A DNA stretch of 36,152 nt from Candidatus Solibacter usitatus (GTDB lineage Bacteria; Acidobacteriota; Terriglobia; Bryobacterales; Bryobacteraceae), in assembly GCA_016213245.1 (NCBI GenBank), contig JACRBC010000008.1, forward strand, positions 1 to 36,152. The letters are read 5' to 3'. Numbering within the stretch: the stretch's first letter is position 1; each line of letters starts with the position of its first letter. Shown one piece after another: positions 1 to 15,639 of this stretch. Below the pieces are notes generated by a model, which did no database searches, was not told the DNA's origin, and worked only from the letters and a program-made list of their open reading frames with translations. Made by a program: the position numbers and the translations under genes.

Positions 1-137
1 ACCTCCGTCAGCCCGAACCCGGCTCCCAACGGGACATTCAGGGAGCTTCGCTCCACACAGAACACCATCCGAACGCCGAATCCGGCTGCGTTTCGTCTGG
101 GCGGCGTCTATTCATACCTTTTCAGGCGGTCACAGAC

Positions 138-3077
138 CTAGAACTCGATCTTCAGCGAGACCTGGAGGATGCGCGGGTCAAAGGCCGCGTTGGGCGCCAG
201 GTAGTTGGCCACCGGCGCGAAGGTGCGGGTGGCGGAGGTGTAGTTGTAAGGGGTGCGGTTCACGTTGGCGACGTTGGCGCGGTTGGTGAGGTTGAAGGCC
301 TCGCCCATGAGCCGCAGGCGGACGCTCTCCCCGTGCAGCGGGATGACCTTGCCGAGCCGCGCATCGAAGGAGTAGAAGCTGGGCAGGGTGTAGACGTTGC
401 GGCCGATTGCGCCGGGGCGGTCGGTGCGGGTGTTGGCGTCGCCGTTGATGTCGGCGTTGCCGCCGACGGTGGGCGAGAAGGGCAGGCCGTTGCGGGCGTT
501 CCAGATGCCGGAGAGCTGCCAGCCGTTGACGACGAAGCGCAGGAAGGGGTTCTGGGAGGCGGCCCAGTAGTTCAAGTCCCACACGCCGGAGGCCACGAAG
601 CGGTTCTTCACGTTGGCGTCGCCGGCGGCGCGGTCGCGGTTGGGGTTGAGGGTGTCCTGGGCGACCTTGGCATCGTCGCCGCCGCCGACTACGACGCTGG
701 TGGCGTCCGGCACGGTGTCGATGACTTTGGACAGGGTGTAGTTGGCCAGGAGCTGGAAGTTGTGCGAGAAACGCTTGGTGATCTGGAGGAAGCCGCCGTG
801 ATAGGTGGAGTCGCCGCCGGATTCAAACAGGCTGATGCGGCCGAAGTTGCCGTTGGGCCGCGTGGCCGGCCGGGTGTAGACGGTGATGGGCGTGCCGTCT
901 GCAAGCTTGGCGTCAGTGGGCGCGACCGGGTACAGGTTGATGTCGCGGGTGCGCGACAGGTGGTAGCCGCGCACGCCCAGATAGCCGATCTGGAGCGAGT
1001 AGTCCTTGCCGAGTTGCGTCTCGTAGTTGAAGTTCCACTGCGCGGTGAGGGGCTGGACGTAGTCCTTTGCGGCCACGTAGATGTCGGGCCGGCGTGAAGT
1101 GGTGGGCGGTCCCGGCAGGACGTTCGGGAACGTGGGCAGGCCGGTAGTGAGGGTGTAGACCTGCACCTGGACGCCGTTCTGCGAGTGCGCCGTGCCGATC
1201 AGGATGGAGGGCGTGCGGGCGTAGAAGATGCCGTAGCCGCCGCGCAGGACGTTCTTTCCGGCGCTGTCCAGCCGGTAGGCGAAGCCGAAGCGCGGGGCAT
1301 GGTTGTTGGTGTCGGTGTTGATGAAGTTGGTGCGCAGACCGGCGGCGGCCAGGCCGGCGTCGGGGTTCAGGACGCTGGGCTGGGCAAAGCGCGCCTGGTC
1401 ATAGCGGTAGCCGTAGTTCAGCGTCAGGCGGTCGCTGACGCGCCAGGCGTCCTGGAGGAAGAAGCTGAACTCGGTGATGTTCGGCGTGGTGAGGGCGCCG
1501 TTGGTGCCCGATCCGGCGAAGCCCTGCGTGAAGAACGCGGGGCGGCGGGTGGCGTAGTCGGCCAGGCTGTTGAAACGGTAGACGCCGGAGAAGTTACCGG
1601 GGAAGAAGTTGTCGATCTTCTCGATGTTCAGATCGACGCCCAGCTTGTAGGTGTGCTTGCCGCGCAGGTAGCTGACGCTCTCGATGAACTGATAGCGCTT
1701 GGCGTTGGTGTAGCGCGGCGAGAAGCTGTTGCGGCCGAAGGTCATGAAGTTGGCCCCGCTCTGGAAGACCTGGGTCTCGGGGGCGGCGGAGTTGGCCTCG
1801 CCCGGTTCGTCGTCCCTGAGCCAGTTGAAGCGCGAGTCAAAGACGATGGATGAGCCGAGGGTCTTGTTGTAGTTCAGGGCCAGGTGATTGGTGGAGACGT
1901 TGGAGTTGCCGGTGTGCTCCTGGGCGCTCTGGCTGCCGGAGTTCTCGAAGTTCTGGCCGCGGAAGCGGTGCATGTTGAGACGCACGCTGAGGCGCTGGGT
2001 GTTGGAGAGGTTCCAGTCGACCTTGGCGAGCCCGATGTCGTTGTTGTAGCCGGTGGTGTAGGAGACCAGGTACTTGTTGAGCTCGGCCACGGCCTGCTGG
2101 GAGAGGGCGTCGGCGGGCGCGGCGAAGGGGTAGAAGACGGGGTTGGGGTTGAGGTTACGCTGCCCGTCGTAGCTGAGAAAGTAGAAGAGCTTGTCCTTCC
2201 TGATGGGGCCGCCGAGGGTGCCGCCGAACTGGTTGAAGTGGTAAGGCTGCCGGGCGATGCCGCGGCTCTTGTTGATGAACGTGTTGGCGTTCATCTCGCG
2301 GTCGCGGAAGAACCAGAAGGCGTTGCCGTGGAGTTGGTTGGCGCCGGACTTGGTAACGACGTTGATGACGCCGCCGCCGGCGCGGCCGATTTCAGCGGCG
2401 TAGCCGTTGGTGTTGACCTGGAACTCCTCCACGGCGTCCTGCGAAAAGCTGTAGGGATTGCGGCCGGAACCGGCGCGGCCGGCCGACTGGCCGAAGAAGA
2501 GATTGTTCGAATCCATGCCGTCGACCAGCAGGCTGTTGGCCGTGCCGCGCTGGCCGCCGAAGCTCAGGTCGCCGCCGCGGGGGTCGCGGTTGACGCCGGG
2601 GGTGAGCAGGGTGAAGTCGAGGAAGTTGCGGCCGTTGATGGGCAGGTCCTTGACGGCGCGCTCATTGACGTTGGTGGAGGTCTGGGAGCGGGTAGTCTCG
2701 ACCAGGGGGAGTTCTCCGCTGACGGTGATGCTCTCGGAGGTGGCGCCGACGGTGAGGGCGATGTCGAGCGTCAGGACAGCGCCTACGGCCAAGTCGATTC
2801 CGGTGCGGTGAACGGCCTTGAAACCGGACTTGTCGGTGGTGAGGCTATAGCGGCCGACGGGAACCCGGACAAAAGTGTAGAGTCCGCTGGAGTTCGATTC
2901 CAGCACACGGGTGAAGCCGGTCTGATCGCTGTTCAAAGTGATCTTGGCGCCGGGGACCGCCGATCCTGAAGGATCGCTAATGGTTCCGGTGACGGTGGCG
3001 CCGCCGGCCTCGGATTGAGCCGAAAGGACGCCGCTAAGGCATATCAGGGAAAGGACAAGAAGGAGCATGCGGGACAT
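138..3077 (-). CDS. Oar-like TonB-dependent outer-membrane receptor
   Basis: This 979-residue protein starts with a signal peptide (hydrophobic residues 4-20, then an A-Q-S boundary). A carboxypeptidase-regulatory-like beta-sandwich follows at about residues 25-110 (TVTGTISDPSG, then GLYTFVRVPVGRY). A TonB plug at about 120-240 contains the LPINGRNFLDF signature typical of the large acidobacterial receptor families. The rest is a beta-barrel rich in alternating aromatics, ending in the outer-membrane signature ILQVSLKIEF with a terminal Phe. The family imports or binds large substrates at the outer membrane, often polysaccharide- or peptide-derived. Nothing here fixes the ligand, and no SusD-like partner or TonB gene is adjacent. 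The gene is divergent from the 19-heme cytochrome across 208 bp. The ATG at 3077 is used. A TAGAAT-like -10 (3085-3090, minus strand) lies very close to the start, so leader length is uncertain. The family call is firm; the substrate is unknown. Confidence 0.9.
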   Translation of the reverse strand: MSRMLLLVLSLICLSGVLSAQSEAGGATVTGTISDPSGSAVPGAKITLNSDQTGFTRVLESNSSGLYTFVRVPVGRYSLTTDKSGFKAVHRTGIDLAVGAVLTLDIALTVGATSESITVSGELPLVETTRSQTSTNVNERAVKDLPINGRNFLDFTLLTPGVNRDPRGGDLSFGGQRGTANSLLVDGMDSNNLFFGQSAGRAGSGRNPYSFSQDAVEEFQVNTNGYAAEIGRAGGGVINVVTKSGANQLHGNAFWFFRDREMNANTFINKSRGIARQPYHFNQFGGTLGGPIRKDKLFYFLSYDGQRNLNPNPVFYPFAAPADALSQQAVAELNKYLVSYTTGYNNDIGLAKVDWNLSNTQRLSVRLNMHRFRGQNFENSGSQSAQEHTGNSNVSTNHLALNYNKTLGSSIVFDSRFNWLRDDEPGEANSAAPETQVFQSGANFMTFGRNSFSPRYTNAKRYQFIESVSYLRGKHTYKLGVDLNIEKIDNFFPGNFSGVYRFNSLADYATRRPAFFTQGFAGSGTNGALTTPNITEFSFFLQDAWRVSDRLTLNYGYRYDQARFAQPSVLNPDAGLAAAGLRTNFINTDTNNHAPRFGFAYRLDSAGKNVLRGGYGIFYARTPSILIGTAHSQNGVQVQVYTLTTGLPTFPNVLPGPPTTSRRPDIYVAAKDYVQPLTAQWNFNYETQLGKDYSLQIGYLGVRGYHLSRTRDINLYPVAPTDAKLADGTPITVYTRPATRPNGNFGRISLFESGGDSTYHGGFLQITKRFSHNFQLLANYTLSKVIDTVPDATSVVVGGGDDAKVAQDTLNPNRDRAAGDANVKNRFVASGVWDLNYWAASQNPFLRFVVNGWQLSGIWNARNGLPFSPTVGGNADINGDANTRTDRPGAIGRNVYTLPSFYSFDARLGKVIPLHGESVRLRLMGEAFNLTNRANVANVNRTPYNYTSATRTFAPVANYLAPNAAFDPRILQVSLKIEF

Positions 3078-3133
3078 AGGTTCTATTCTAGCCGCTAATA
3101 CTGGTGGACCTGTGAACTTTGAGGTGGTGGTGA

Positions 3134-3151
3134 AGCTATCGAACGATAGCT
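3134..3151. promoter_or_regulatory. 18-bp perfect palindrome, candidate operator
   Basis: Two 8-base arms, AGCTATCG and CGATAGCT, are separated by AA. The element sits between the divergent receptor gene (start 3077) and the 19-heme cytochrome gene (start 3286). Its position and dyad symmetry suit a dimeric regulator, and no T-run makes it a terminator. No second copy was noticed in the window, so the cognate regulator is unknown. Confidence 0.4.
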
Positions 3152-3234
3152 AACCGGGGTCCCCTGACTCGCGAGGAGAGGTGACGGACGGGGGGTGCGG
3201 GGAACGGCCACGAAGTTGACTCGTGACGTCATTC

Positions 3235-3263
3235 TTAATAAGATAATCAGGTCTTGGTATAAT
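3235..3263 (+). promoter_or_regulatory. Sigma-70-type promoter with extended -10 for the 19-heme cytochrome
   Basis: A perfect -10 hexamer TATAAT (3258-3263) is preceded by the extended -10 TGG (3255-3257). Exactly 17 bases upstream is TTAATA (3235-3240), which matches TTGACA at 4 of 6 positions. Transcription would begin near 3270, leaving a leader of about 16 nt that contains the ribosome site AAAGAGGT (3273-3280) six bases before the ATG at 3286. The stretch is AT-rich compared with its surroundings. Nearby GG(3206)-N10-GA could be read as a degenerate sigma-54 site, but it lacks the -12 GC. Confidence 0.65.
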
Positions 3264-3285
3264 CAATTGACAAAAGAGGTCAAGA

Positions 3286-6126
3286 ATGCGCCAGCGCGGT
3301 GGGGTGGCGGCGGGAGAGGGACGAAGCCGGTGGAGGAAACCGGCTCTGGCGTTTTGGGTTGGATGCCTGTTGCTGGCCGCCGGTGCGTTGCTGGCCGGGG
3401 CGCAGGCCCCGCAGAAGAAGCCGCTGCCGGGCTCGGGGGAGTGCGCCAATTGCCACGAGAACGGGCGTCCCGGGAAGCGCGAGGCGGGGGTGCCTCCGGC
3501 GTTTCATGAAGCAGCGCTGCGGGCCTCTCCGCACGCCGAGCAGGAGTGCAGCGGTTGCCATGCCGACCTGGCGAAGGTGAAGGAGTTCCCGCACGCGGAG
3601 AAGCTGGCGAAGGTGGACTGCGGAACCTGCCATCCGGAGGTGCAGGCAAAGTACGACGAGAGCCTGCATGGGAAGGGGCTGAAGAAGGGCGACAAGCTGG
3701 CGCCGGTGTGCAAGGACTGTCATGGCGGGCACACGGTATTGAGGCCGTCCGACCCGCGTTCGCCGGTGTCGACGATGGAAGTGCCGAAGCTCTGCGGCCG
3801 GTGCCACCGCGAGGGGACGCCGGTGAGCATGACGCGGAACATCCCGCAGGCCAACATCCTGGAGAACTACCGGGACAGTATTCATGGCGAAGGACTCTAC
3901 CGGCGCGGGCTGACGGTGACGGCCGTTTGCACGAGCTGCCACACGTCGCACTTCGTGCTGCCGCATACCGATCCGAGGTCCTCCATTGCCAAGGCCAACA
4001 TCGCCAAGACCTGTACGAAGTGCCATGCGCAGATCGAGACGGTGCACCGGCAGGTGATTCGCGGTGAGCTGTGGGAGAAGGGCCCGCACCTGATTCCAGC
4101 GTGCGTGGACTGCCACGAACCGCACAAGGTGAGAAAGGTCTTCTACTCGCAGGGGATGTCGGACGGCGACTGCCTGCGTTGTCATGGCGACAAGACGCTG
4201 TCGGTGGAGCGCGGCGGCAAGCTGTTCTCGCTGTACACGGACGCAAACGAGCTGGCCGGGTCGCGCCACGTGCGGACGGCCTGCGTGCAATGCCACACCG
4301 GTGGGACGCCGTCGCACAAGCGGCCATGCGACACCATGCCGGCCAAGGTGGACTGTTCAGTGTGCCACGCCGAGCCGGTGAGGCTGTACCGGGAGAGCAC
4401 GCACGGTAAGCTGGCGGCGCAGGGCAGCCCGGATGCGCCGGGCTGCCGCGACTGCCACAGCCCGCACGGGGTGAAGAGCAGGAACGACTCGGCCTCGCCC
4501 ACCTATTCGCGCAACGTGCCGGCGCTCTGCGCCAGTTGCCACCGCTCGGGCAAGAAGGCGTCGGTGCGCTACAGGGGGACGCAGGATCACATGGTGGAGC
4601 ACTACGGCGAGAGCATCCACGGCAAGGGGCTGATACAGAGCGGCCTGACAGTGACGGCCGATTGCGCCGATTGCCATACGGCGCATCACGAACTGCCGAG
4701 CAAGGATCCGGCGTCTTCGGTGAACCGTGCCAACATCGCGGTGACGTGCTCCAAGTGCCACCGCGGAATCTACGACCAGTTCAAGAACAGCGTCCACAGC
4801 CCGGCGGTGACCAAGGGCAAGAAGTTGCCCGAATGCGCCGACTGCCACTCGGCGCACAGCATCCAGCGCACGGACCTGACCAACTTCCGCCTGCACATCA
4901 TGGACCAGTGCGGCCGCTGCCACAAGGAGATCACCGCCCGCTACTTCGACACGTTCCACGGCAAGGTTTCGGCGCTGGGGTACCTGAAGACGGCGAAGTG
5001 CTACGACTGCCACGGCGCCCACGACATTCTGCCGGTGAACAATCCGAAATCGCACCTGAGCCGGGTCAACATCGTGAAGACCTGCGGCAAGTGCCACACG
5101 GGCTCTCACCGGCAGTTTGCCGGTTACCTGACCCACGCCACCCACCACGACCCGGAGAAGTACCCGTTCCTGTTCTGGACCTTCTGGGGCATGACCACGC
5201 TGCTGCTGGGAACGCTGGCCGTGTCGGGTTTCCACACGTTGCTCTGGCTGCCGCGGTCGTTTGAGTACCGGCGCATGCTCAAGAAGACCCACTCGCTGGA
5301 GGGTATTCACGTGCGGCGGTTCGAGCCGCTGCAAAGAAACCTCCACCTGATGGTGATCTCCTCCTTCCTCGGTTTGGCGCTGACGGGCATGCTGCTGAAG
5401 TTCTCCTACTCGCCCTGGGCGCGCGTGCTGGGCCGGCTGCTGGGCGGGTTTGAGTCCGCCGGCTACATCCACCGCTTCTGCGCGCTGCTGACGTTCGCTT
5501 ACTTCGTGTTGCACATCCGGGACCTGTTCAAGAAGAAACGGCAGAGCGGTAAGTCCTGGGTCCAGTTCATCACCGGTCCGGAGAGCATGCTGTTCAACAA
5601 GCGGGACTGGCGCGAGCTGGTGGAATCGCTGAAGTGGTTCTCCAACCGCGGGCCGCGGCCCGACTACGGCCGCTGGACCTACTGGGAGAAGTTCGACTAC
5701 TTCGCCGTGTTCTGGGGCGTGGCGGTGATCGGCGGCACGGGCCTGATCCTGTGGTTCCCGGAGATTTTCACCAGAGTGATCCCGGGCTGGATGGTGAACG
5801 TGGCGACGACCATCCACAGCGACGAGGCGTTGTTGGCGGTGAGCTTTATCTTCACCGTTCATTTCTTCAACACTCACTTCCGGCCGGAAAAGTTCCCGAT
5901 GGATACGGTGATCTTCACCGGCGGGATTCCGTTGGAGGAGTTCAAGAAGGACCGCCCGCGGGAGTACCGGCAACTGGTGGAGAGCGGCAAGCTGGAAGAA
6001 AGACTGATGCCGGAGCCCGAGCCGCTGGCGCTGAAATTGTGGCGGCGGCTGGGCTTCACGGCCCTATGCATCGGCCTGGCGATGATCCTGATGATCATCT
6101 ACGCGATGGTGTTTGCCTACAAGTAG
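3286..6126 (+). CDS. 19-heme cytochrome c fused to a b-type cytochrome membrane domain
   Basis: The 946-residue protein has a membrane anchor or signal at about 20-40, then a periplasmic domain (53-604) with 19 CXXCH sites. The C-terminal domain has about five or six membrane helices (near 626-650, 684-704, 727-745, 802-824, 843-862, 922-944). Histidines H687, H729, H743, H844 and H859 are placed like the b-heme ligands of HydC/FdnI-type cytochrome b. Heme sites 3-8 (Cys 112, 142, 170, 215, 243, 273) recur as sites 11-16 (357, 387, 415, 460, 488, 517), an offset of 245, or 244 for the last. Sites 17-19 (542, 572, 600) repeat the first three at offset 430. The inferred role is oxidation of menaquinol at the membrane with electrons passed along a periplasmic heme wire, as for the smaller Geobacter CbcL. 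The acceptor is unknown. AAAGAGGT supports the start. The gene converges on the sigma-54 activator with an 11-base gap. Confidence 0.9.
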   Translation: MRQRGGVAAGEGRSRWRKPALAFWVGCLLLAAGALLAGAQAPQKKPLPGSGECANCHENGRPGKREAGVPPAFHEAALRASPHAEQECSGCHADLAKVKEFPHAEKLAKVDCGTCHPEVQAKYDESLHGKGLKKGDKLAPVCKDCHGGHTVLRPSDPRSPVSTMEVPKLCGRCHREGTPVSMTRNIPQANILENYRDSIHGEGLYRRGLTVTAVCTSCHTSHFVLPHTDPRSSIAKANIAKTCTKCHAQIETVHRQVIRGELWEKGPHLIPACVDCHEPHKVRKVFYSQGMSDGDCLRCHGDKTLSVERGGKLFSLYTDANELAGSRHVRTACVQCHTGGTPSHKRPCDTMPAKVDCSVCHAEPVRLYRESTHGKLAAQGSPDAPGCRDCHSPHGVKSRNDSASPTYSRNVPALCASCHRSGKKASVRYRGTQDHMVEHYGESIHGKGLIQSGLTVTADCADCHTAHHELPSKDPASSVNRANIAVTCSKCHRGIYDQFKNSVHSPAVTKGKKLPECADCHSAHSIQRTDLTNFRLHIMDQCGRCHKEITARYFDTFHGKVSALGYLKTAKCYDCHGAHDILPVNNPKSHLSRVNIVKTCGKCHTGSHRQFAGYLTHATHHDPEKYPFLFWTFWGMTTLLLGTLAVSGFHTLLWLPRSFEYRRMLKKTHSLEGIHVRRFEPLQRNLHLMVISSFLGLALTGMLLKFSYSPWARVLGRLLGGFESAGYIHRFCALLTFAYFVLHIRDLFKKKRQSGKSWVQFITGPESMLFNKRDWRELVESLKWFSNRGPRPDYGRWTYWEKFDYFAVFWGVAVIGGTGLILWFPEIFTRVIPGWMVNVATTIHSDEALLAVSFIFTVHFFNTHFRPEKFPMDTVIFTGGIPLEEFKKDRPREYRQLVESGKLEERLMPEPEPLALKLWRRLGFTALCIGLAMILMIIYAMVFAYK

Positions 6127-6137
6127 GCCGGCGGCGC

Positions 6138-7484
<1,347 letters not shown>

Positions 7485-7660
7485 GTACCCCTTTGAAGTC
7501 CTATTGTATTGCGCCAGAGGGGTTGAGGGAAGGGACCCCCCCAGGGAAAGTGGGGGAATTGCCCCAGGCGACGGGGAGCGTTGCCTTGCCAATGCCGATG
7601 TCGTTCACGTAAACAAATGAAAACATGCCAGTTGTTCGAATCAGCGGCGCTGGCTGGCAT

Positions 7661-7676
7661 TGGACCCTAGATTGCA
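7661..7676 (+). promoter_or_regulatory. Sigma-54 promoter (-24/-12) of the cytochrome operon
   Basis: The bases TGGACCCTAGATTGCA match the consensus TGGCACG-N4-TTGCA with invariant GG and GC exactly 10 bases apart and a perfect TTGCA. Nine of 12 informative positions agree. Transcription would start near 7687, which excludes the upstream ATG at 7625 and supports the start at 7724. The divergent neighbour is a sigma-54 activator, which strengthens the call. Confidence 0.7.
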
Positions 7677-7723
7677 AGATTCAAGTGTCGCAGACGAATT
7701 CAGGCAGAAACGGAACAGCGGCC

Positions 7724-8101
7724 ATGGGAAACATCCAGGTAGCCCTGAGCGACGTGGCGAAAGCCGACGCATTGCGCGCGCTGTTGGCGCGGAGCACGCC
7801 CGTGCCTGTGGTTTGCGTCGACAGCCCGGACTATGAAGGCGCCTGCGTGGTGGTGCTGGATGGGGAGCGGTTTGGAGAATCGGCAGGCTGCCTGCCTCAC
7901 CCGGAGCGGGTCGTGCTCATCACCCGCAACGACGCGGGGCACCTGAAAGAGGCCTGGGAGGCCGGAGTGAGTTCGGTGCTCTCCGATCAGGATCCGTTGA
8001 ATACCGTGGTGCTGGCTGTGCTGGCGGCGTGCCTGCGCAGCGGCGCCGCATGGCCGAAGTCCGCCGGAGGCCGGAGCGCCCACGGGCGACCGGAACCTTG
8101 A
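7724..8101 (+). CDS. Small degenerate receiver-like protein, first gene of the cytochrome operon
   Basis: The protein has 125 residues from the ATG at 7724. An earlier in-frame ATG at 7625 lies upstream of the sigma-54 promoter and encodes unconvincing sequence. The body reads like the second half of a response-regulator receiver fold: a hydrophobic strand (RVVLITRND), a helix (HLKEAWEAGVSSVL), then a loop and final helix (PLNTVVLAVLAACL). The usual phosphoacceptor Asp and the acidic pair are not evident at the N-terminus, and the conserved Lys of the fifth strand is replaced (SDQD). It is therefore probably a non-phosphorylated pseudo-receiver used for protein contact. The ribosome site is weak. 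It is 17 bases from the next gene and first in the operon, so a regulatory or assembly role for the cytochromes is plausible but unproven. Confidence 0.6.
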   Translation: MGNIQVALSDVAKADALRALLARSTPVPVVCVDSPDYEGACVVVLDGERFGESAGCLPHPERVVLITRNDAGHLKEAWEAGVSSVLSDQDPLNTVVLAVLAACLRSGAAWPKSAGGRSAHGRPEP

Positions 8102-8118
8102 ACACGAGGAGTTAGATC

Positions 8119-8397
8119 ATGACAAAACTGATACCGTATGGAATCGCCTGGGCGGTGCTGGCGGTCATTGTGATGGTCCTGGCTGGGATAAGGAGATCGG
8201 TTGCGGCGAAGGAGGATGATACTCTCCACCTCGGCGGTGAAGCCGCGGTTGTTGAACAGCAGGTGGATGTCGCCAAGAAACTGGAGGTTTTGGACAGGTG
8301 GGGAAAGATCCTCACGGTGATTCTGGCCGTCAGTGGGGCGGCGCTGGCCTGCTGGTGGGGCTATATCCAGTTCACCACCGTGGGCGGCTTTGAATAG
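8119..8397 (+). CDS. Small membrane protein with two helices
   Basis: This 92-residue protein has a hydrophobic segment at about 5-24 (YGIAWAVLAVIVMVLAG), a charged middle (about 25-62, with EDD and a predicted amphipathic stretch QQVDVAKKLEVLDRW) and a second helix at about 64-83 ending near WWGY. GAGGAG at 8106-8111 lies seven bases from the ATG, a good ribosome site. No CXXCH or other cofactor motif is present. The protein is not recognised as a named family. It lies between the receiver-like gene and the nonaheme b/c cytochrome, so it may be a small subunit or assembly partner of the cytochrome complex. Confidence 0.7.
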   Translation: MTKLIPYGIAWAVLAVIVMVLAGIRRSVAAKEDDTLHLGGEAAVVEQQVDVAKKLEVLDRWGKILTVILAVSGAALACWWGYIQFTTVGGFE

Positions 8398-8407
8398 GCC
8401 GGTCCGG

Positions 8408-8452
8408 TCCGGCCGCCGGCGATAAGCCATCCTACCCGGCCGGGCGGCCGGA
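8408..8452 (+). other. GC-rich hairpin between operon genes
   Basis: The arms TCCGGCCGCC (8408-8417) and GGCGGCCGGA (8443-8452) are perfect complements over 10 bp with a 25-base loop. No T-run follows, so intrinsic termination is unlikely. It lies in the 86-base gap before the nonaheme gene and could stabilise or process the mRNA between the small genes and the cytochromes. Confidence 0.4.
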
Positions 8453-8483
8453 TTGCTCTCGCTAATTGACTGAGGTGTCTGGC

Positions 8484-10148
8484 ATGATCACGAGACCTAC
8501 CTTCAGTGTGTGTCTGGCGGTACTGCTTTTCGCCGCCTCAGCGCCGCTCGTGGGGCAGGCCAAGCCGGCGGCGCTGGCGCCGCCGGTTCCCAACACGACC
8601 TGCGCGGAGTGCCACGATGTGGAGGCCAAACTGGCCAAATCGGCGCACGCGCCGGTGGCCTGTGCATCCTGCCACGCCCGGCACGAGACCTACCCGCACC
8701 CCGACAAGCAGCCCAAACCAGTGTGCCGGAGCTGTCACGAGCAGACGGCCAACGACTACGAGCAGAGCGAGCACGCGCAGCAGATGCGCCGCGGCAACGG
8801 CATGGCGCCGGAGTGCGTCTCCTGCCACGGTAAGGTACACGAGGTCACCCGCGCGCTGTCGCCGGAGTTCCACAAAGCGGTGCCGGAAACCTGCGGGATG
8901 TGCCACGACAAGGCCGCCGAACACTTCAACAAGTCGGTGCACGGCACGGCGGTGGCCGCCGGAGTGACCGACGCGCCCGTGTGCTCGGACTGCCACGGCG
9001 GCCACAGGATTCTGAAGAAGGACAACCCGAAGTCGACCGTCTTTCCCGGCAGCGTGCCGGATACTTGCGGCCACTGCCACGGGGACGTGCGGTTGGCACG
9101 TCGTTACAATCTGCCGGGAGACCGCATCTCCTCGTTCAACGAGAGTTTCCACGGCCTGGCGCTGAAGTCGGGCAATCAGAGCGTCGCCGATTGCGCGTCA
9201 TGCCACGGGTACCACGACATCCTCCCCTCCGCCGATCCAAAGTCGATGACGCACCCGCTGAACCTGGCCAAGACCTGTGGTTCCTGCCATCCCGGCGCCG
9301 GAAGCCGGTTTGCCATCGGGGCGATTCACGAAGTGGAGAACCCCAAGACCGCGTGGCCGGTGGAGTGGGCGCGGGTCTTCTACCTGCTGGTCATTCCCGG
9401 AACCATCGGCTTCATGCTCTTGCACCACGCCGGCGATTTCATCATGAAGCTCACGCACATGCGCTTCCAGGGCCGCGACGTGCCGATGCAGATGCTCCGC
9501 CCGGTCACCTCGCAGCATGAGCGGATGTATGCGTTGGAAAGGATGCAGCACGCGGCGCTGGCGCTGAGTTTCTTCGTGCTCGCCTATACCGGTTTTGCGC
9601 TCCACTACCCGGACTCCTGGTGGGCCAGTTGGTTCCTGCATTGGGAGGACAAGTACCCGCTGCGTGGCACCGTGCACCGGACCGCGGGCGCCGTGATGGT
9701 GGTGACCTCCATCGCCCATGTGGCTACGGTGATATTCAACCGCAAGCTCCGTGATCATTGGAAGGAACTGCTGCCGGCGGCCGGGGACTTGCGCGAGATG
9801 GTGGAGGGCACGTTATGGCGGCTGGGCATGCGCAAGCAGAAGCCGCACCAGTCTTCGCACAGCTACATCGAGAAGATCGAGTACTGGGCGCTGGTCTGGG
9901 GCACGGTGGTGATGGCCGCCACCGGAGCCCTGTTGTGGTTCAACGACTGGACCATGACCATCATGCCGAAGATGTGGATCGACTTTGCCCGGGTCATCCA
10001 CTTCTACGAAGCGGTGCTGGCCACCCTCGCCGTCGTGGTGTGGCACTGGTACAGCGTGATCTTCGACCCCGACGTGTACCCGATGGATCCGTCGTGGCTG
10101 ACGGGGTACAGCCCGCGGCCGGACGACAATTCAGACCACCGGGACTGA
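8484..10148 (+). CDS. Nonaheme cytochrome c fused to b-type cytochrome domain (CbcL-like)
   Basis: The ATG at 8484 (GAGGTG at 8472-8477) gives 554 residues; an in-frame TTG at 8466 would add six. A signal peptide (about 5-25) precedes nine CXXCH sites with first cysteines at 40, 60, 81, 111, 137, 167, 195, 237 and 265. A membrane domain follows with helices near 296-316, 355-374, 398-418, 466-486 and 504-525. H356, H398, H412, H506 and H521 are candidate b-heme ligands in the same order as in the 19-heme protein. The C-terminal YPMDPSWLTG corresponds to FPMDTVIFTG there, so the two are paralogues. Nine c hemes plus a HydC/FdnI-like b domain is the architecture of Geobacter CbcL, an inner-membrane quinol oxidase used in low-potential extracellular respiration. 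The function here is inferred from that similarity. A NapC-like gene follows after 37 bases. Confidence 0.9.
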   Translation: MITRPTFSVCLAVLLFAASAPLVGQAKPAALAPPVPNTTCAECHDVEAKLAKSAHAPVACASCHARHETYPHPDKQPKPVCRSCHEQTANDYEQSEHAQQMRRGNGMAPECVSCHGKVHEVTRALSPEFHKAVPETCGMCHDKAAEHFNKSVHGTAVAAGVTDAPVCSDCHGGHRILKKDNPKSTVFPGSVPDTCGHCHGDVRLARRYNLPGDRISSFNESFHGLALKSGNQSVADCASCHGYHDILPSADPKSMTHPLNLAKTCGSCHPGAGSRFAIGAIHEVENPKTAWPVEWARVFYLLVIPGTIGFMLLHHAGDFIMKLTHMRFQGRDVPMQMLRPVTSQHERMYALERMQHAALALSFFVLAYTGFALHYPDSWWASWFLHWEDKYPLRGTVHRTAGAVMVVTSIAHVATVIFNRKLRDHWKELLPAAGDLREMVEGTLWRLGMRKQKPHQSSHSYIEKIEYWALVWGTVVMAATGALLWFNDWTMTIMPKMWIDFARVIHFYEAVLATLAVVVWHWYSVIFDPDVYPMDPSWLTGYSPRPDDNSDHRD

Positions 10149-10185
10149 ATCTAGCACTTCAGTACGGTAGAATAGAGATTCAATC

Positions 10186-11637
10186 ATGAAGTTCAAGCAA
10201 TGGCTCGCGCCCCTAGTCTATCTCGCCAGTAACTGGATCAGCCTGATCGGTGTTGTGCTGGTCACCACGGCCGGCATCCTGTGGATTCTGCTGATCCCCA
10301 GCACCATGAGGGGGGGGCACGCATCCGGACCCTATATAGGAATTCTTCAGTTCATGATGCTGCCTGCCGTGTTCTTCGCCGGCTTGGCGCTCATCCCGCT
10401 AGGGATGTGGTGGTTCAAGAAGCGGAACAAAGGCAAACTGCCCGAGCGCTTCCCGCCGCTGGACTTCGACAACCCCAGGTTCCGGAGGTTGCTGGCGTTT
10501 CTCGGCGCAACCACGGTGGCCAACCTGGTGATCGGCGGATCGCTGACCTACAAGGCGGTCGCCTACATGGAATCGGTCAACTTCTGCGGACAGACCTGTC
10601 ACGTAGTGATGAAGCCGGAGTTCACCGCCTACCAGAACTCTCCGCACTCGCGCGTGGAGTGCGTCTCCTGCCACATCGGCCCCGGCGCCAACTGGTTCGT
10701 CAAGAGCAAGATCTCGGGCTCGTGGCAGGTGATCTCGGTCAGTTTGAACCTGTACCCGCGGCCCATTCCCACGCCGATTGAAAACCTGCGCCCGGCGCGC
10801 GAGACCTGCGAGGTGTGCCACTGGCCGCAGAAGTACGGCGGAGACCGGTTGCGGATCATTAACAGCTTCACCGACGATGAGCGGCCGAAATTGACCAGGA
10901 CGGTCCTGCTGATGCACATCGGCGGCGGCAACGGCTACGAGGGCATCCACGGCGCGCACATGGGGCCGGGCGTCGAGGTGCGCTACGCGCCTTCCGACAA
11001 GCAGCGGCAGAAGATCCCGTGGGTGGAGTACACCGGCAAGGAAGGCAAGAAGTTCGTCTTCAAGGCCGATGGGTACAAGGACGAAGGGCCGGGCAACATG
11101 GACGTGCGGACGATGGACTGCATGGACTGCCACAACCGCCCGTCGCACACCTACGAACTGCCTGAAAGGGCGCTGAACAAGTCGATGGCGGCGGGCGAAC
11201 TGGATCTGGATCTGCCGTTCGTGCGCAAAGCGGCGTTGGAAGTGCTGAAGCAGAAGTACGCCACCACGCAGGAATCCGAACGGGAGATCGTCCGCCGGTT
11301 CAAGGCCTACTACGAAAAGAACTACCCGGACCTGGCCAGGACCAAGGCCGCCGGCATCGATCGCAGCGCCCGCGCCGTGCTGGCCGTCTACGGCCGCAAC
11401 GTCTTCCCGGAGATGAACGTCAACTGGGGGAGCTATCCGAACAACATCGGACACACCGACTTCGACGGCTGCTTCCGCTGCCACGATGAGCGGCCCTCCA
11501 CCGCCGGCGGCCGCACCATCCCGCAGGACTGCGAAACTTGCCACAAGATGCTGGCGCAGGACGAGGAGGCGCCCAAGGTGCTCACCGACCTGGGGCTGGG
11601 TCACGCCTGGCAGACGGGGCTTGACAAGGGCAAGTAA
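10186..11637 (+). CDS. Six-heme NapC/NirT-like membrane cytochrome c
   Basis: This 483-residue protein has two N-terminal helices (about 12-38 and 52-75) and a third at about 103-125 that acts as the usual NapC/NrfH membrane anchor. Heme sites follow at C134, C159, C208, C312, C429 and C449. The first is CGQTCHVVM, a CX3CH spacing with a downstream Met, instead of CXXCH; the other five are standard. The segment CVSCHIGPGANWFVKSK is typical of NapC/NirT proteins. The roughly 270-residue extension beyond the tetraheme core carries the last three hemes and makes it much longer than NapC (about 200 residues). The family takes electrons from quinol and passes them to periplasmic partners. It lies 37 bases after the nonaheme gene. 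A TAGAAT box (10168-10173) might give a secondary promoter, but its -35 is poor. The partner reductase is not in the window. Confidence 0.88.
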   Translation: MKFKQWLAPLVYLASNWISLIGVVLVTTAGILWILLIPSTMRGGHASGPYIGILQFMMLPAVFFAGLALIPLGMWWFKKRNKGKLPERFPPLDFDNPRFRRLLAFLGATTVANLVIGGSLTYKAVAYMESVNFCGQTCHVVMKPEFTAYQNSPHSRVECVSCHIGPGANWFVKSKISGSWQVISVSLNLYPRPIPTPIENLRPARETCEVCHWPQKYGGDRLRIINSFTDDERPKLTRTVLLMHIGGGNGYEGIHGAHMGPGVEVRYAPSDKQRQKIPWVEYTGKEGKKFVFKADGYKDEGPGNMDVRTMDCMDCHNRPSHTYELPERALNKSMAAGELDLDLPFVRKAALEVLKQKYATTQESEREIVRRFKAYYEKNYPDLARTKAAGIDRSARAVLAVYGRNVFPEMNVNWGSYPNNIGHTDFDGCFRCHDERPSTAGGRTIPQDCETCHKMLAQDEEAPKVLTDLGLGHAWQTGLDKGK

Positions 11638-11672
11638 ACGGCGAACAAATAGGGTGGACACGGAGGTTCGCC

Positions 11673-12539
11673 ATGCCGCTGAAACACGTTGTTGTGCCCG
11701 TCGATTTCTCCGAGAAGAGCGAGGGCGCGGCGCGCTACGCCGAAGCTCTGCGCAAACGCTTCGGATGCAGCATCTCGCTGCTGCACGTGCTGGCCCCACC
11801 GCACTATGAGTTCGGCGCAATGGAGGTGGGCGGCAGCGTTCTGGAGGAGCTCTACCGCAACAGGACGGGTCAGGCGCGGCTGGATCTGGACGCCTTTCTG
11901 GCGTCCGAGATTGCTCCCGAGGGCGCCGGGCGGCTGCTTGTGGAGGGCGACCCGGCGGCCCAGATCGTCCATGTGGCGCACGAGCGGGGCGCGGACCTGA
12001 TCGTGATGCCCACGCACGGCTACGGGACATTCCGGCGGTTCATTCTCGGCTCGGTGACCGCCAAGGTTCTGCACGACGCCGACTGTCCCGTCTGGACCGG
12101 CGTTCATCTGGAGGCGCATTCGCCGGAAGAGGTCCGCTTCGAGCGCGTTGCGGTGGCCATCGACCTGGGCCCGCAGAGCGAACGTGCGCTGATGTGGGGC
12201 AAACGCTTTGCCGAATCGGCCGGGGCGCAGCTCATCATCATCCACGCCACACCAAACCTGGAGGGGCGTGCCGGCGATTACTTCGATCCGGACTGGCGGC
12301 GGCACATGGAGGCCTCTGTCCGCGAAGAGGTGACGGCGCTGCTGGCGCGGCTGGAGATGAACGCGCCCCTGATGGTGGACAGCGGCGAGCCTTCCGAGGT
12401 CGTCTGCGAGCTGGCGCGGGAGTGGAACGCCGACGTACTGGTGATCGGTCGCGGTTCGGCTGCCGGCGTCTTCGGGCGGCTGCGAGCCAACGCCTACTCC
12501 ATCATCCGGCAATCCCATTGCCCGGTGGTCAGCGTCTAA
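11673..12539 (+). CDS. Tandem universal stress protein (UspA family)
   Basis: The 288 residues form two Usp domains (about 1-150 and 153-288). The first opens LKHVVVPVDFSEKSEGA and ends with a nucleotide-loop-like segment HGYGTFRRFILGS, in which the first Gly of the G-2X-G-9X-GS pattern is replaced by Met (MPTHG). The second opens FERVAVAIDLGPQSERAL and has VIGRGSAAGVFGRL. Family members bind ATP or AMP and act in stress or energy-state responses in the cytoplasm. GGAGGT at 11662-11667 is a strong ribosome site. The gene follows the NapC-like gene after 35 bases in the same direction, so it probably ends the sigma-54 operon and may link it to energy status. Its stop overlaps that of the pseudogene on the other strand. 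Confidence 0.9.
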   Translation: MPLKHVVVPVDFSEKSEGAARYAEALRKRFGCSISLLHVLAPPHYEFGAMEVGGSVLEELYRNRTGQARLDLDAFLASEIAPEGAGRLLVEGDPAAQIVHVAHERGADLIVMPTHGYGTFRRFILGSVTAKVLHDADCPVWTGVHLEAHSPEEVRFERVAVAIDLGPQSERALMWGKRFAESAGAQLIIIHATPNLEGRAGDYFDPDWRRHMEASVREEVTALLARLEMNAPLMVDSGEPSEVVCELAREWNADVLVIGRGSAAGVFGRLRANAYSIIRQSHCPVVSV

Positions 12540-13561
12540 CCGGCACTGCCGGTGAACAGGCTCTCACTCTGGCGTTGGAGTACCGCCTGGAAATCCGGGT
12601 CGGCGATGGAGATGAGCGCCTCGGCCCGCTGGTGCAGGTTGCGGCCGTGCAGGTTGACTGCGCCGGAATCGGTGGCCGCCCAATGAACATCCGCTCGTGA
12701 AGCCACCACGCCGCCGCCGGGCTTGAGCCGGGCAACGAGCCTCGAAACCGCGCGCCCTTGGCCGTCGAGGGCAGGGCGATCACAGGGCCCCGTCTCCGGA
12801 ATGGGCCGCGCCGCCGATGAAGTCCACCTGCCCGCCCGCTCTTGCTGCCGTTGGTGACCGGGCCGCACTCGATCAGGGGAATCAGGCCGGCGCTGGGCAT
12901 CTCGGGATGGACGCTCAGCTCCTGGGGGTCCTTCAGGGCCAGCGGCACGGCTTCGGAATGCCGCCGATGCCGATCTGGATGGTGGCGCCGTGGGGGACGA
13001 GGTTGGCCACATGGCGCCCGATGGCGAGATGAACGGGGGTGACTTCGAGCGAAGGGAGTTGCGGCAGTGGCTGAGGCGACTCGACGATGGCGGCCGCCTC
13101 GCTGACGTGGACGGCGGAGTTGACGAAGGTCCGCGGCGACTGCTCGTTGACCTGCACCACCAGGCGCCCGGCGCTTCTGGCGGCAGCCAGCGGCATGTCG
13201 ATTCCGGGTCCGAGGCTCATCCAGCGGTGAAGATCAGGCGGGGCCTATGAAGAGGGCGCCATGGCGGAAGGAGCCGGCCGGGCCGGGCGCTGCCTACGGC
13301 GCCGGTCCGGGCGTGAGGCAGCGCCGCACCTCAACGCCGCGCGCTCTGGCGCGGGGCGTGCTCGCAAAGGGCGTCCAGCAGGGCTTGGGGCGCTGCGGCG
13401 CCCATGTGGACGTAGACGCGCTGGCCGCGCCCCGCACAGGCTCCACCGCCGCCACAGCGCCGCTGCGCCGGGCCGCCTACAGCCTTTGCCAATTGCTCAT
13501 CAGATCTCATCTTCGCCGAGATTCTTCCCTTCACGGTGCGGCTTGTCCGCCCGATATGCAC
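12536..13561 (-). pseudogene. Decayed acetyl-CoA hydrolase / 4-hydroxybutyrate CoA-transferase
   Basis: No intact frame covers this stretch, but pieces of one family appear in the correct order in different minus-strand frames. GQRVYVHMGAAAPQALLDAL (about 13450-13350) is the N-terminal motif, and GALFIGP lies near 13250. SLGPGIDMPLAAARSAGRL and HGATIQIGIGGIP fall in 13220-12950. ALKDPQELSVHPEM and VTNGSK follow in a second frame. GQVDFIGGAA lies in a third frame near 12830, and ADVHWAATDSGAVNL with RAEALISIADPDFQ comes before the stop at 12536. Compared with the usual length of about 430 residues, roughly 50 residues are missing after GALFIGP and about 60 after VTNGSK. The family moves CoA between acetate and other acyl groups. 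Several independent lesions argue against a sequencing error. This fills the 1.05-kb gap between the Usp and pentapeptide genes. Confidence 0.85.
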
Positions 13562-13594
13562 CTCAGGATAGGTATCTCAGGGTGATGCCGCGAA

Positions 13595-14533
13595 ATGCCG
13601 ATGTGGATCTCAGGTATGAACACGGATGACGCTGCCAATGCTGAAGCTCCAGCCGCGGCCGATGTGTGGAGGAGCGTGCTGGCGCCCCACGAATTGTGGC
13701 TCGATCGGCGCGAGGGCGGCTTTCGCGCCGTGCTCTCCGATCTGGCGCTGAGCGATGTGCGCGCACCGCTGGTGCGCCTGGCCAAGGCGTCGATGAGCCG
13801 GTTGGAGATGTGCGGCGCCACCTTGAACGGCGCCGGACTCGCCGGCGTGGAACTGGATCAGTGCGACCTGTCGATGGCGAATATGTCGGGCGCCGATCTG
13901 ACCGAAGGCCGGTGGAGCAAGGTCACGCTGAACGCCGCCAGCCTGTCGGCCGCCAACCTCTGTGAAATCCAGATGGAAGAGTGTCTTCTCCGCCAGGCGA
14001 AAGCGCCGCGCTCGCGCTGGCAGGAAGCGCGCCTGACCCGCTGCGACTTCCGCGAAGCCGTTCTGCCGCAGGCCGCCTTCCAGCACGCCTCCGTGCAGGA
14101 AGGCGATTTCTCCGGCGCCGACTTGGAAGGCGTCCTGTTCTACCGCGCCACGCTACGCTTCTGCCGCTTCAGGAAAACCCGCGCGGCGGGCACCAACTTC
14201 TCCTCGGCGCTGGTGGCCCAGTGCGATTTCTTCGAGGCATCTCTCGACCGCGCCCGCTTCTACCAGGCCGACCTCAGAGGCAGTTCCTTCGCCGGTTGCT
14301 CGCTACTCGACGCCGATTTCCGCGAATCGAAGCTCGACGGCTGTTCGCTGGCCGGCTGCCGGCTCGACGGCGCCCGCTTCGGCGCCGCCAGCCTGGTGGC
14401 CGCCGATCTCAGGGGCGCCAACCTGAGGCTGGCTCATCAACTGCAAGTCCGGCAGTTGATGCAGGCGCGCACCGACAACACCACCATTCTGCCCGGCGGC
14501 GCCTGCGGTCCGGCTCGCATGCTGGGGAATTAG
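13595..14533 (+). CDS. Pentapeptide-repeat protein
   Basis: After an N-terminal stretch of about 45 residues, the protein (312 residues) is built of A(D/N)LXX-type pentapeptides such as ADLTE, ANLCE, ADLEG, ADLRG, ADFRE and ANLRL from about residue 50 to 290. Such repeats fold as a right-handed quadrilateral beta-helix. Some family members mimic DNA, such as the quinolone-resistance Qnr proteins, but most have unknown partners. There is no signal peptide, so a cytoplasmic location is likely. The ATG at 13595 has AGGGTGA nine bases upstream; a second ATG at 13616 is possible. Its stop overlaps the stop of the convergent acyltransferase by three to four bases. The specific function is unknown. 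Confidence 0.88.
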   Translation: MPMWISGMNTDDAANAEAPAAADVWRSVLAPHELWLDRREGGFRAVLSDLALSDVRAPLVRLAKASMSRLEMCGATLNGAGLAGVELDQCDLSMANMSGADLTEGRWSKVTLNAASLSAANLCEIQMEECLLRQAKAPRSRWQEARLTRCDFREAVLPQAAFQHASVQEGDFSGADLEGVLFYRATLRFCRFRKTRAAGTNFSSALVAQCDFFEASLDRARFYQADLRGSSFAGCSLLDADFRESKLDGCSLAGCRLDGARFGAASLVAADLRGANLRLAHQLQVRQLMQARTDNTTILPGGACGPARMLGN

Positions 14534-15639
14534 TCGCCCGCGGGCTGGTTGGCCGGAATCCGCATCCCGTTCCACTGCTGGCGCGCCCACACCGAAAAGC
14601 CAGGGCGGCCCTTCCAGCCCGTGCGCGCCACCGACAGCCCGATCATCAGGCCGATGATCACTGCCGCCATCACGACCGTCTGCGCCACGCTCAGCGACTC
14701 CTTCCACACGCCGAACCAGCGGCCATACACCAGCTCGGTGTGCACCCAGTACACCAGCAGCGAGGTGCCGCCCAACTGGCGCACAAAGCTCCAGCCATTC
14801 GGGTTCATGTGGCGCGTCCAGAGGAATGCGAAACAGGCCAGCAGCAGGATCACCCCCAGCTTGATCAGGATCAGTCCCGGACTGTTTACCCAGAAATCGG
14901 AGCGCGCATAGAGCGAGTACGGCAGGTTGGAGAAGTACTGCGCGCCGAAGATCAGTCCCAGGCCCATCAGGGCCGCCCACTGCATCACGCGGTGCATCTC
15001 GGATTCCTCCACCAGCCGCAGGATGGAGCCCGCGCTCAGCCCGAAGGCGATGAACGCCGCCCAGGGGAAGAAGGCGAAGAAGTTCGCATCCGGGACCAGC
15101 CAGTGGCGCAGCAGCGGGTGGACCCAGTCCAGGTTCAACGAATGAATGATCGGCGCGGCACAGGCAATGGCCAGTCCGCTGACGGCGGCGAACCGCACGC
15201 GGTCGCGCGTCTCGAAAATCGCTAGCGGCGCCAGCACGGCGATACCCAGGGCCATCGAGTTCAGGATGTCCACGCGGAAGATGTCGGTCCACGGGCTTTG
15301 CCCGAATGCGAAGGCCCACATCTGGACGCGGAACAGGAACGCCACCGCCAGCAGGTAGCCGGCACGCCGCATCGCGGTGGCGGTCCGCTGCCACGGCGTC
15401 AGGCCCTTCCGCGCGCTGGAATCCATCAGGAAACCCAGCGTCACGCCCGTCAGAAACAGGAACACGGCCGGGGTGAGCCCTCCGCAGAACTGCGATAGCG
15501 TATAAGGCCCGTCGCCGCGGAGTTCCTTGGCGGTGAAGGAGTGGAACACGTGGCCCTGCAGCATGATCAACGCCGCGAAACCGCGCGTCCAGTCGAGGAA
15601 TGCGAGCCGCTGCCCGCTGGAGGAATGCATCTTGCCCAT
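14530..15639 (-). CDS. HGSNAT/DUF1624-type membrane acyltransferase
   Basis: The 369 residues form about ten membrane helices. The opening RLAFLDWTRGFAALIMLQGH and the following segment LTPAVFLFLTGVTLGF match the heparan-alpha-glucosaminide N-acetyltransferase/DUF1624 membrane acyltransferase group, in which an early histidine (here in QGHVFHSF) is thought to carry the acyl group. The substrate in bacteria is generally unknown, but cell-envelope glycans are likely. The ATG at 15639 lies nine bases after the stop of the LolA-like gene, so the two belong to one leftward operon. The C-terminal 40 residues are basic and may be cytoplasmic. The alternative is the OpgC/acyltransferase-3 family, which shares the general fold pattern. 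Confidence 0.75.
   Translation of the reverse strand: MGKMHSSSGQRLAFLDWTRGFAALIMLQGHVFHSFTAKELRGDGPYTLSQFCGGLTPAVFLFLTGVTLGFLMDSSARKGLTPWQRTATAMRRAGYLLAVAFLFRVQMWAFAFGQSPWTDIFRVDILNSMALGIAVLAPLAIFETRDRVRFAAVSGLAIACAAPIIHSLNLDWVHPLLRHWLVPDANFFAFFPWAAFIAFGLSAGSILRLVEESEMHRVMQWAALMGLGLIFGAQYFSNLPYSLYARSDFWVNSPGLILIKLGVILLLACFAFLWTRHMNPNGWSFVRQLGGTSLLVYWVHTELVYGRWFGVWKESLSVAQTVVMAAVIIGLMIGLSVARTGWKGRPGFSVWARQQWNGMRIPANQPAGD

What the first reader, a model, noticed from the sequence alone, without database searches (positions are those of the whole stretch)
3235..12539. Candidate sigma-54-controlled quinol-to-acceptor electron-transfer island
Two paralogous b/c multiheme quinol oxidases, a six-heme NapC-like protein, a bEBP with a cysteine-rich PAS and small accessory genes are packed in 9 kb. 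The nearest known analogue is Geobacter CbcL/CbcBA with its sigma-54 activator BccR. Finding such an island with a 19-heme version in an apparent acidobacterium suggests low-potential anaerobic or extracellular respiration. No outer-membrane conduit is present, so the terminal acceptor is open.
Basis: partly seen in the sequence, partly recalled or inferred. Interest (0 to 1): 0.78.

Follow-up and report, generated by a model that had tools for sequence, protein, structure and literature searches.

The report
Quinol-oxidase island for extracellular respiration
A bacterium carries side by side three inner-membrane proteins that look built to push respiratory electrons towards the cell surface, one of them with a doubled 19-heme wire, and its genome also encodes likely outer-membrane gates for those electrons, which makes a reported gap in this pathway testable.

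Summary
In detail: the 9 kb carry a 946-aa protein with 19 CxxCH and a b-type membrane domain, a 560-aa paralogue with 9, a six-heme NapC-like protein, a sigma-54 activator with a cysteine-rich PAS, two small ORFs and a Usp protein. Tests refine it. The 19-heme protein is the CbcL-type one (b domain 45-48% identical to Geobacter-group CbcL) and its heme domain is a tandem duplication, period 245 residues and 8 hemes. The 9-heme protein has CbcL's layout but falls in a separate clade. The six-heme protein is ImcH-family. The window has no conduit, but the same MAG has an MtrCAB-like cluster (C133), a second with an unclassified barrel (C29), a decaheme-barrel pair (C115) and another OmcA/MtrC-family cytochrome (C23); in two same-class genomes decaheme and MtrB-type barrel share one cluster with 19-heme protein, paralogue and ImcH. 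Best reading: a quinol-oxidase module for extracellular respiration, candidate for the inner-membrane donor reported missing beside acidobacterial MtrCAB. Sigma-54 control is unproven (rpoN present, only weak -24/-12-like sites), and strict co-occurrence with MtrB is not significant. New variant of a known kind; no experiment.

The parts
3235..3263 (+). sigma-70-like site TTAATA-17-TATAAT with TG before the second hexamer, upstream of the 19-heme gene
   Evidence: 2 such sites in the region against a mean of 1.3 in shuffles, so not evidence by itself
3286..6126 (+). CbcL-type quinol oxidase, 946 aa: N-terminal hydrophobic stretch, 19 CxxCH, C-terminal b-type membrane domain
   Evidence: from residue 357-415 to 942 it aligns with four Geobacter-group CbcL-type proteins at 38-40% identity; grouped with them in the tree
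3547..4281 (+). first copy of the 245-residue, 8-heme repeat (residues 88-332; borders set from the heme spacing)
   Evidence: in-register copies 40% identical over 235 aligned columns; heme spacing repeats with shift 8
4282..5016 (+). second copy of the 245-residue, 8-heme repeat (residues 333-577)
5116..6123 (+). b-type cytochrome domain (residues 611-946); His 687, 729, 844, 859 invariant
   Evidence: 45-48% to Geobacter-group CbcL; 37 of 37 rows
6138..7484 (-). sigma-54 activator (448 aa): PAS with CX8CX3C motif, AAA, Fis-type HTH; no receiver domain found
7660..7676 (+). weak -24/-12-like site TTGGACCCTAGATTGCA, 47 nt before the 125-aa ORF
   Evidence: 10 of 13 consensus positions, P about 0.10 for the region; no strict consensus site in the window
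7724..8101 (+). 125-aa ORF, first gene of the putative operon, no family
   Evidence: no homologue at E below 0.08 in the neighbourhoods searched
8119..8397 (+). 92-aa ORF with two hydrophobic stretches, no family
8466..10148 (+). 9-heme + b-domain protein, paralogue of CbcL in a separate clade; His 362, 404, 512, 527 invariant in its clade
   Evidence: (15 of 15 rows)
10186..11637 (+). ImcH-family six-heme cytochrome: 3 hydrophobic stretches, CX3CH + 5 CX2CH
   Evidence: only match in its own genome
11673..12539 (+). tandem universal stress protein, last gene of the putative operon
   Evidence: PF00582 4e-52; gap of 35 nt to the ImcH-type gene

Best explanation
The island encodes an inner-membrane electron-export module. 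Three membrane cytochromes (a CbcL-type 19-heme/b protein, a 9-heme/b paralogue and an ImcH-family protein) oxidise menaquinol and pass electrons through periplasmic hemes to outer-membrane decaheme-barrel conduits encoded elsewhere in the same genome (C133, C29, C115), and so to extracellular acceptors such as Fe(III) oxides or humics. By analogy with Geobacter, the CbcL-type and ImcH-type proteins would serve different acceptor potentials. The island is a candidate for the inner-membrane donor that Baker et al. 2022 did not find beside acidobacterial mtrCAB. Shown by sequence: gene content, heme counts, family placement, the tandem duplication, conserved His of the b domains, conduit-type genes in the same MAG, linkage of the parts in relatives. 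Inferred: quinol oxidation, direction, electron path, acceptor, redox split, redox sensing by the PAS activator and its targets.
For: 19-heme b domain 45-48% to four Geobacter-group CbcL-type proteins, whole match E about 1e-120 to 1e-126; trees and AU test. Six-heme protein 40-48% to one protein in each of four reference genomes; the Geobacter/Geomonas ones have CX3CH + 6 CX2CH after three hydrophobic stretches (a fourth in one frame read from the previous stop), the ImcH layout (PMC6295460). Same genome: MtrB_PioB barrel, three MtrA/DmsE-family decahemes over the cut-off, OmcA/MtrC-family cytochromes at C133, C29 and C23. In L051 and L053 (same class) decaheme, PF11854 barrel, 19-heme protein, b subunit, 11-heme/b paralogue and ImcH type lie on one strand in one cluster; the L051 decaheme is 41-42% identical to the C133 one, more than to C29 or C115. 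Among 29 other loci with the 19-heme protein: ImcH type nearby in 13, a heme-bearing b paralogue in 11, both in 8, a decaheme in 6. Any match to the protein co-occurs with MtrB_PioB: 43 of 137 against 25 of 160 genomes, p 0.0014, phylogeny not corrected for. No RuBisCO.
Against: The stricter set of 37 genomes with the 19-heme protein does not co-occur significantly with MtrB_PioB (11 of 37 against 57 of 260, p 0.30), though PF11854 misses the barrel-like proteins of C29 and C115. Island and conduits are on different contigs; a functional link in this organism is not shown. The MAG is 78.6% complete. The two other genomes of its family that were searched lack the 19-heme protein. 16 of 29 loci show no ImcH type nearby, some cut by contig ends. 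CbcL-family proteins also occur in Fe(II) oxidisers (PMC6295460). No useful structure: the single-sequence model is poor (pLDDT 38.9).
Confidence: 0.66

Rival explanations
1. The module runs backwards: it takes electrons from outside (Fe(II) or another cell) and reduces quinone, as proposed for MtoC.
For: CbcL/MtrH/MtoC homologues occur in Fe(II) oxidisers and no feature was found that separates the directions (PMC6295460, section 10). Mtr-type conduits are implicated in both directions (same paper).
Against: An ImcH-family protein is present, so far implicated only in quinol oxidation (PMC6295460, section 11); no RuBisCO was found (the MAG is incomplete and other CO2-fixation routes were not searched).
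Confidence: 0.13
2. The electrons go to a periplasmic acceptor rather than to the outside; the ImcH/NapC-like protein and the b/c proteins would feed a multiheme reductase such as the multiheme proteins of C133 or C150.
For: Multihemes with PF13447 matches and weak hydrazine-dehydrogenase-like matches (62.7 and 89.6 bits, cut-off 900) exist at C133 (488 aa) and C150 (426 aa); NapC/NirT-type proteins feed periplasmic reductases in general (recalled).
Against: The six-heme protein matches ImcH types at 40-48% and scores far below the NrfH cut-off (43.8 against 134.2 bits). I saw no reductase in the window part of the island, and in L051, L053, L041, L046 and L049 decahemes and barrel-like proteins are neighbours (the L041 barrel has no family match and the L046 one is placed by similarity to it). 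NrfA and other reductases were not searched for.
Confidence: 0.12
3. The conduits or the island are contaminants of the MAG, so that they do not belong to one organism.
For: Contamination 2.17% and 153 contigs; closest relatives of the 19-heme protein lie in other families, while the two searched same-family genomes lack it.
Against: G+C 0.64-0.65 and tetranucleotide correlations 0.966-0.984 of the island, C133, C29 and C115 with the rest of the window, although stretches of G192 and G278 also reach 0.94; several contigs carry conduit-type genes; relatives hold the parts in one cluster.
Confidence: 0.06

Closest known systems
CbcL (Geobacter) / MtrH / MtoC quinol oxidase family
   Same: Multiheme c domain fused to a HydC/FdnI-type b domain; conserved His; 45-48% identity in the b domain to Geobacter-group CbcL-type proteins
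   Different: 19 instead of 9 c hemes, with a tandem duplication of 245 residues; 19 lies within the 3-23 reported for the family (PMC6295460). The island's second, 9-heme protein has the CbcL layout and 27-31% overall identity but falls in another clade
ImcH (Geobacter)
   Same: Three hydrophobic stretches, CX3CH first, heme motifs in the same alignment columns, 40-41% identity
   Different: Lacks the last CX2CH (six hemes, not seven), as do several relatives; encoded beside CbcL-type genes
CbcBA with its sigma-54 activator BccR (Geobacter; layout and BccR recalled, CbcBA function from passages of PMC12307469)
   Same: b/c quinol oxidase plus a sigma-54 activator
   Different: c and b parts fused here; BccR sequence not available, so relation unknown
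Acidobacterial MtrCAB, group 5 of Baker et al. 2022 (PMC8805035, passages read)
   Same: C29 holds OmcA/MtrC-family, decaheme and barrel-like genes and next to the last a gene with four CxxCH; the paper reports a tetraheme cytochrome gene downstream of mtrB
   Different: The paper reports no inner-membrane quinone oxidoreductase beside mtrCAB and did not search beyond the locus; the C29 barrel-like protein has no family match, and group membership was not tested

Membership tests
CbcL/MtrH/MtoC family (19-heme protein) | N-terminal multiheme c domain, 3-23 CX2CH (PMC6295460) | tested here: met
   19 CX2CH
CbcL/MtrH/MtoC family (19-heme protein) | C-terminal HydC/FdnI-like b domain with conserved His | tested here: met
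   Ni_hydr_CYTB and formate-DH gamma matches, both below curated cut-offs; 45-48% identity to Geobacter-group CbcL b domains; four His invariant in 37 of 37 rows
CbcL/MtrH/MtoC family (19-heme protein) | six transmembrane helices | tested here: inconclusive
   Hydropathy scan finds 4 beside the N-terminal stretch; it finds 5 in each of four Geobacter-group CbcL-type proteins, so the scan undercounts
CbcL/MtrH/MtoC family (19-heme protein) | groups with Geobacter CbcL | tested here: met
   b-domain tree: in one set with Geobacter-group CbcL (SH-aLRT 82-96), apart from the 9-heme clade; G. sulfurreducens CbcL itself was not at hand
CbcL/MtrH/MtoC family (19-heme protein) | menaquinol oxidation for low-potential extracellular acceptors | not testable with these tools
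   needs biochemistry or genetics
CbcL proper (9-heme protein) | groups with Geobacter CbcL | tested here: not met
   in a clade of 14 rows, support 100/100; AU p about 1e-97 against joining it to CbcL, long branches noted by the tool; b domain 24.5-26% identical
CbcL/MtrH/MtoC in the wide sense (9-heme protein) | overall identity at or above the 28.6% reported as the family's lower bound | tested here: inconclusive
   27-29% or 30-31% to Geobacter-group CbcL, near the bound
ImcH family | 3 TM, CX3CH, 5-9 CX2CH (PMC6295460) | tested here: met
ImcH family | sequence orthology to Geobacter ImcH | tested here: met
   one hit per reference genome, 40-48%; only match in the own genome; no tree made
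BccR / sigma-54 regulon of CbcBA | RpoN-dependent activation of the adjacent cytochrome genes | tested here: inconclusive
   rpoN present, activator present, only weak promoter candidates; BccR sequence not at hand
CbcBA | separate b and c proteins (recalled) | tested here: not met
   fused in the window; split in relatives G073, G121, G257
MtrCAB conduit (elsewhere in the genome, C133) | mtrA-, mtrB- and mtrC-type genes clustered | tested here: met
   TIGR03508 6.5e-73, TIGR03509 7.7e-80, TIGR03507 1.3e-137, all over cut-off

The most novel reading that the evidence does not exclude
The 19-heme protein is a single-molecule wire across the periplasm: the duplicated heme domain lets the quinol oxidase dock on the outer-membrane decaheme directly, replacing the diffusing PpcA-type shuttle. 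Consistent: the duplication is shared by relatives (heme spacing repeats best with shift 8 in 23 of 29 others); no PpcA-sized PF14522 frame was reported for the genome, the smallest being 205 aa, while the model does detect PpcA (the MAG is incomplete); in L051 and L053 the conduit genes lie beside it. Against: small tetraheme proteins lie near it in some relatives, and no structure exists.
Probability: 0.2. Interest if true: 0.8.

Novelty: new variant of a known kind. Interest (0 to 1): 0.56.

Why it matters
Acidobacteria are suspected of iron reduction in peat soil from their decaheme cytochromes (PMC3669403), and Baker et al. 2022 (PMC8805035) report acidobacterial MtrCAB clusters without any inner-membrane quinone oxidoreductase beside them. 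A compact island with CbcL-type, paralogous and ImcH-type proteins in a genome that has such conduits gives named candidates for that missing step. The doubled heme domain poses a physical question, whether a membrane quinol oxidase can bridge the periplasm itself.

Tried and rejected
Rejected: that the 9-heme protein is the CbcL orthologue because heme count and length match; tree and AU test speak against it. Rejected: that the six-heme protein is NrfH. Rejected: a strict sigma-54 promoter in the window. Inconclusive: co-occurrence of the 19-heme protein proper with MtrB_PioB (p 0.30). Led nowhere: AlphaFold of the 946-aa protein alone (pLDDT 38.9; no fold search made); PDB sequence searches, one match for the 19-heme protein (28pb, 9e-9, over residues 295-428) and none for the six-heme one; homologues of the 125- and 92-aa ORFs; the 19-heme protein on plasmids (no match). 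The cysteine motif of the PAS is not special: CX8CX3C is in all 11 other rows printed; five more of the 17 loci L158-L174 gave no row there.

Rows dropped and caveats: 13 rows left out of the first tree by length of the b domain; three further rows and the two Anaeromyxobacter ones left out. My simple ORF caller misread some loci (for instance L054, and the decaheme at C133), so neighbourhood counts come from 29 other loci out of 40 fetched and are lower bounds. The set of 37 genomes was assembled by hand from the table, partial and split cases included; in G265 both matches lie in one open frame, so it is counted as fused.

Papers: PMC6295460 abstract, sections 10-11 and passages; PMC8805035, PMC3669403, PMC12307469, PMC11748539, PMC9386147 passages; PMC9129911 abstract; the others search listings only. 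Prior reports of this island or of the duplication: searched, none noticed in the rows listed there; the library lacks most subscription journals.


Full report
What is there. From 7724 to 12539 the gaps are 17, 68, 37 and 35 nt, so this looks like one operon; the 19-heme gene is a unit of its own. The genome is a 3.83-Mb assembly in 153 contigs, 78.6% complete, 2.17% contaminated.

What the proteins are. I used PpcA, checked against the PDB, to reach named Geobacter-group genomes (G. sulfurreducens did not appear) and searched Geobacter argillaceus, Geomonas sp. Red32, Geobacter sp. OR-1 and Anaeromyxobacter soli. The 19-heme protein aligns from residue 357-415 to 942 with four 9-heme CbcL-type proteins of the three Geobacter/Geomonas genomes (38-40%, E about 1e-120 to 1e-126), its b domain at 45-48%; the 9-heme protein's b domain reaches only 24.5-26% with them, its whole length 27-29%. 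A tree of 60 b domains puts the 19-heme protein with CbcL and the 9-heme protein in a separate clade; with 55 rows that clade of 14 has support 100/100 and joining the 9-heme protein to CbcL is rejected (AU p about 1e-97). Four His are invariant in both groups (37 of 37 and 15 of 15 rows), so both b domains look intact. The six-heme protein has one hit in each of the four genomes, 40-48%; in the three Geobacter/Geomonas ones that protein has the ImcH layout, with heme motifs in the same columns, and the window's lacks only the last. It is the only match in its own genome. Neither family is new in the phylum: Zhong and Shi 2018 list 19 ImcH and 2 CbcL-family homologues for Acidobacteria and 3-23 hemes for the CbcL family (PMC6295460).

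The doubled wire. Residues 88-332 and 333-577 of the 19-heme protein are in-register copies: period 245 residues and 8 hemes, 40% identity over 235 aligned columns (149 bits), against 81 bits for the best off-register match. The heme-spacing pattern repeats with shift 8 in the window protein (8 of 10 spacings within 2 residues), and shift 8 is the best in 23 of 29 relatives.

Distribution. In 297 genomes of the phylum group 137 match at E<=1e-30; 31, the own one included, have one long match at 49% identity or more, G265 has it in two pieces of one open frame, and in three same-class genomes (G073, G121, G257) the c and b parts are separate frames. The closest proteins (68-69%) are in other families (G192, G278), while the two searched genomes of the own family have none, so the distribution is patchy. 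I fetched 40 neighbourhoods. Among the 29 other loci in which the 19-heme protein was called, an ImcH type lies nearby in 13, a heme-bearing b paralogue in 11, both in 8, a decaheme in 6. In L051 and L053 decaheme, MtrB-type barrel (PF11854), 19-heme protein, b subunit, 11-heme/b paralogue and ImcH type follow on one strand. Zhong and Shi found no mtrAB adjacent to imcH; these loci differ.

The conduit question. The window has none, but the genome has: at C133 an OmcA/MtrC-family cytochrome, a 7-heme protein, an MtrB_PioB barrel, a DmsE/MtrA-family decaheme, a sigma-54 response regulator and, judged by eye, a histidine kinase; at C29 an OmcA/MtrC-family cytochrome, a decaheme, a barrel-like protein and a protein with four CxxCH; at C115 a decaheme and a barrel-like protein; at C23 another OmcA/MtrC-family cytochrome. 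The C29 and C115 barrel-like proteins have no family match but resemble each other and the L032 one. The C133 decaheme is 41-42% identical to the one in the L051 cluster, the other two 33-35% and 31-32%, which ties conduit and quinol oxidase together by synteny in a relative. Against this, the 37 genomes with the 19-heme protein proper do not co-occur significantly with PF11854 (11 of 37 against 57 of 260, p 0.30), while any match does (43 of 137 against 25 of 160, p 0.0014, not corrected for kinship).

Known gap. Baker et al. 2022 (PMC8805035, passages) report MtrCAB with 5 hits among the Acidobacteriia, with a tetraheme cytochrome gene downstream of mtrB and no inner-membrane quinone oxidoreductase beside the cluster, and say that they did not search beyond the mtrCAB loci. 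C29 resembles that layout, and the present island is a candidate for the missing part. That C29 or C133 belongs to their group 5 was not tested.

Regulation. rpoN is present and the genome has 13 strong sigma-54 activator matches. No strict site exists in the window; the best intergenic candidate, 7660-7676, is weak (P about 0.10), a weaker one precedes the 9-heme gene, and none at 9 or more of 13 precedes the 19-heme gene. The PAS cysteine motif CX8CX3C is shared by all 11 other rows. Sigma-54 control of the 7724-12539 operon is plausible, not shown.

Verdict. A real, conserved electron-export module built from known families in a new variant: a tandem-duplicated 19-heme CbcL type, a 9-heme paralogue and an ImcH type together, in a genome with outer-membrane conduit genes. 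That electrons leave the cell this way is inference.

Noticed in passing
L175 (G000:C64) 1-3066 and 2991-4934, minus strand: Two neighbouring giant multiheme cytochromes: 39 CxxCH in a 1022-residue frame that runs off the contig, and 23 CxxCH in 647 residues, with a short repeating heme unit; only a match below cut-off for the second.
   Followed up: partly
L072 (G000:C133) 12254-15021: A sigma-54 response regulator and what looks like a histidine kinase lie directly beside the mtrA/mtrB-type genes, so sigma-54 regulation may act at the conduit as well.
   Followed up: partly
genomes of L078 and L093: In Geobacter argillaceus the CbcL-type and ImcH-type genes lie about 9 kb apart, in Geobacter sp. 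OR-1 about 27 kb apart on one contig.
   Followed up: no
L050, L061 (23 CxxCH); L040, L044, L045, L062, L064 (21 CxxCH); L046 (10 heme motifs, ImcH type): Further heme-number variation within the 19-heme and ImcH-type families.
   Followed up: no
L154 (Anaeromyxobacter soli): The ImcH-type protein has CX2CH in place of the atypical CX3CH, and the search reports one TGA inside the match.
   Followed up: no
window 34768-36090 - and 33793-34758 -: Cytochrome bd oxidase subunit II and a DsbA-like thioredoxin-fold protein, so the organism may also respire oxygen.
   Followed up: no
L177 (G000:C150) 5686-6966 - and L178 (G000:C107) 5113-5772 +: An eight-heme protein with a PF13447 match and a five-heme protein with a QrcA-like match below cut-off.
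   Followed up: no
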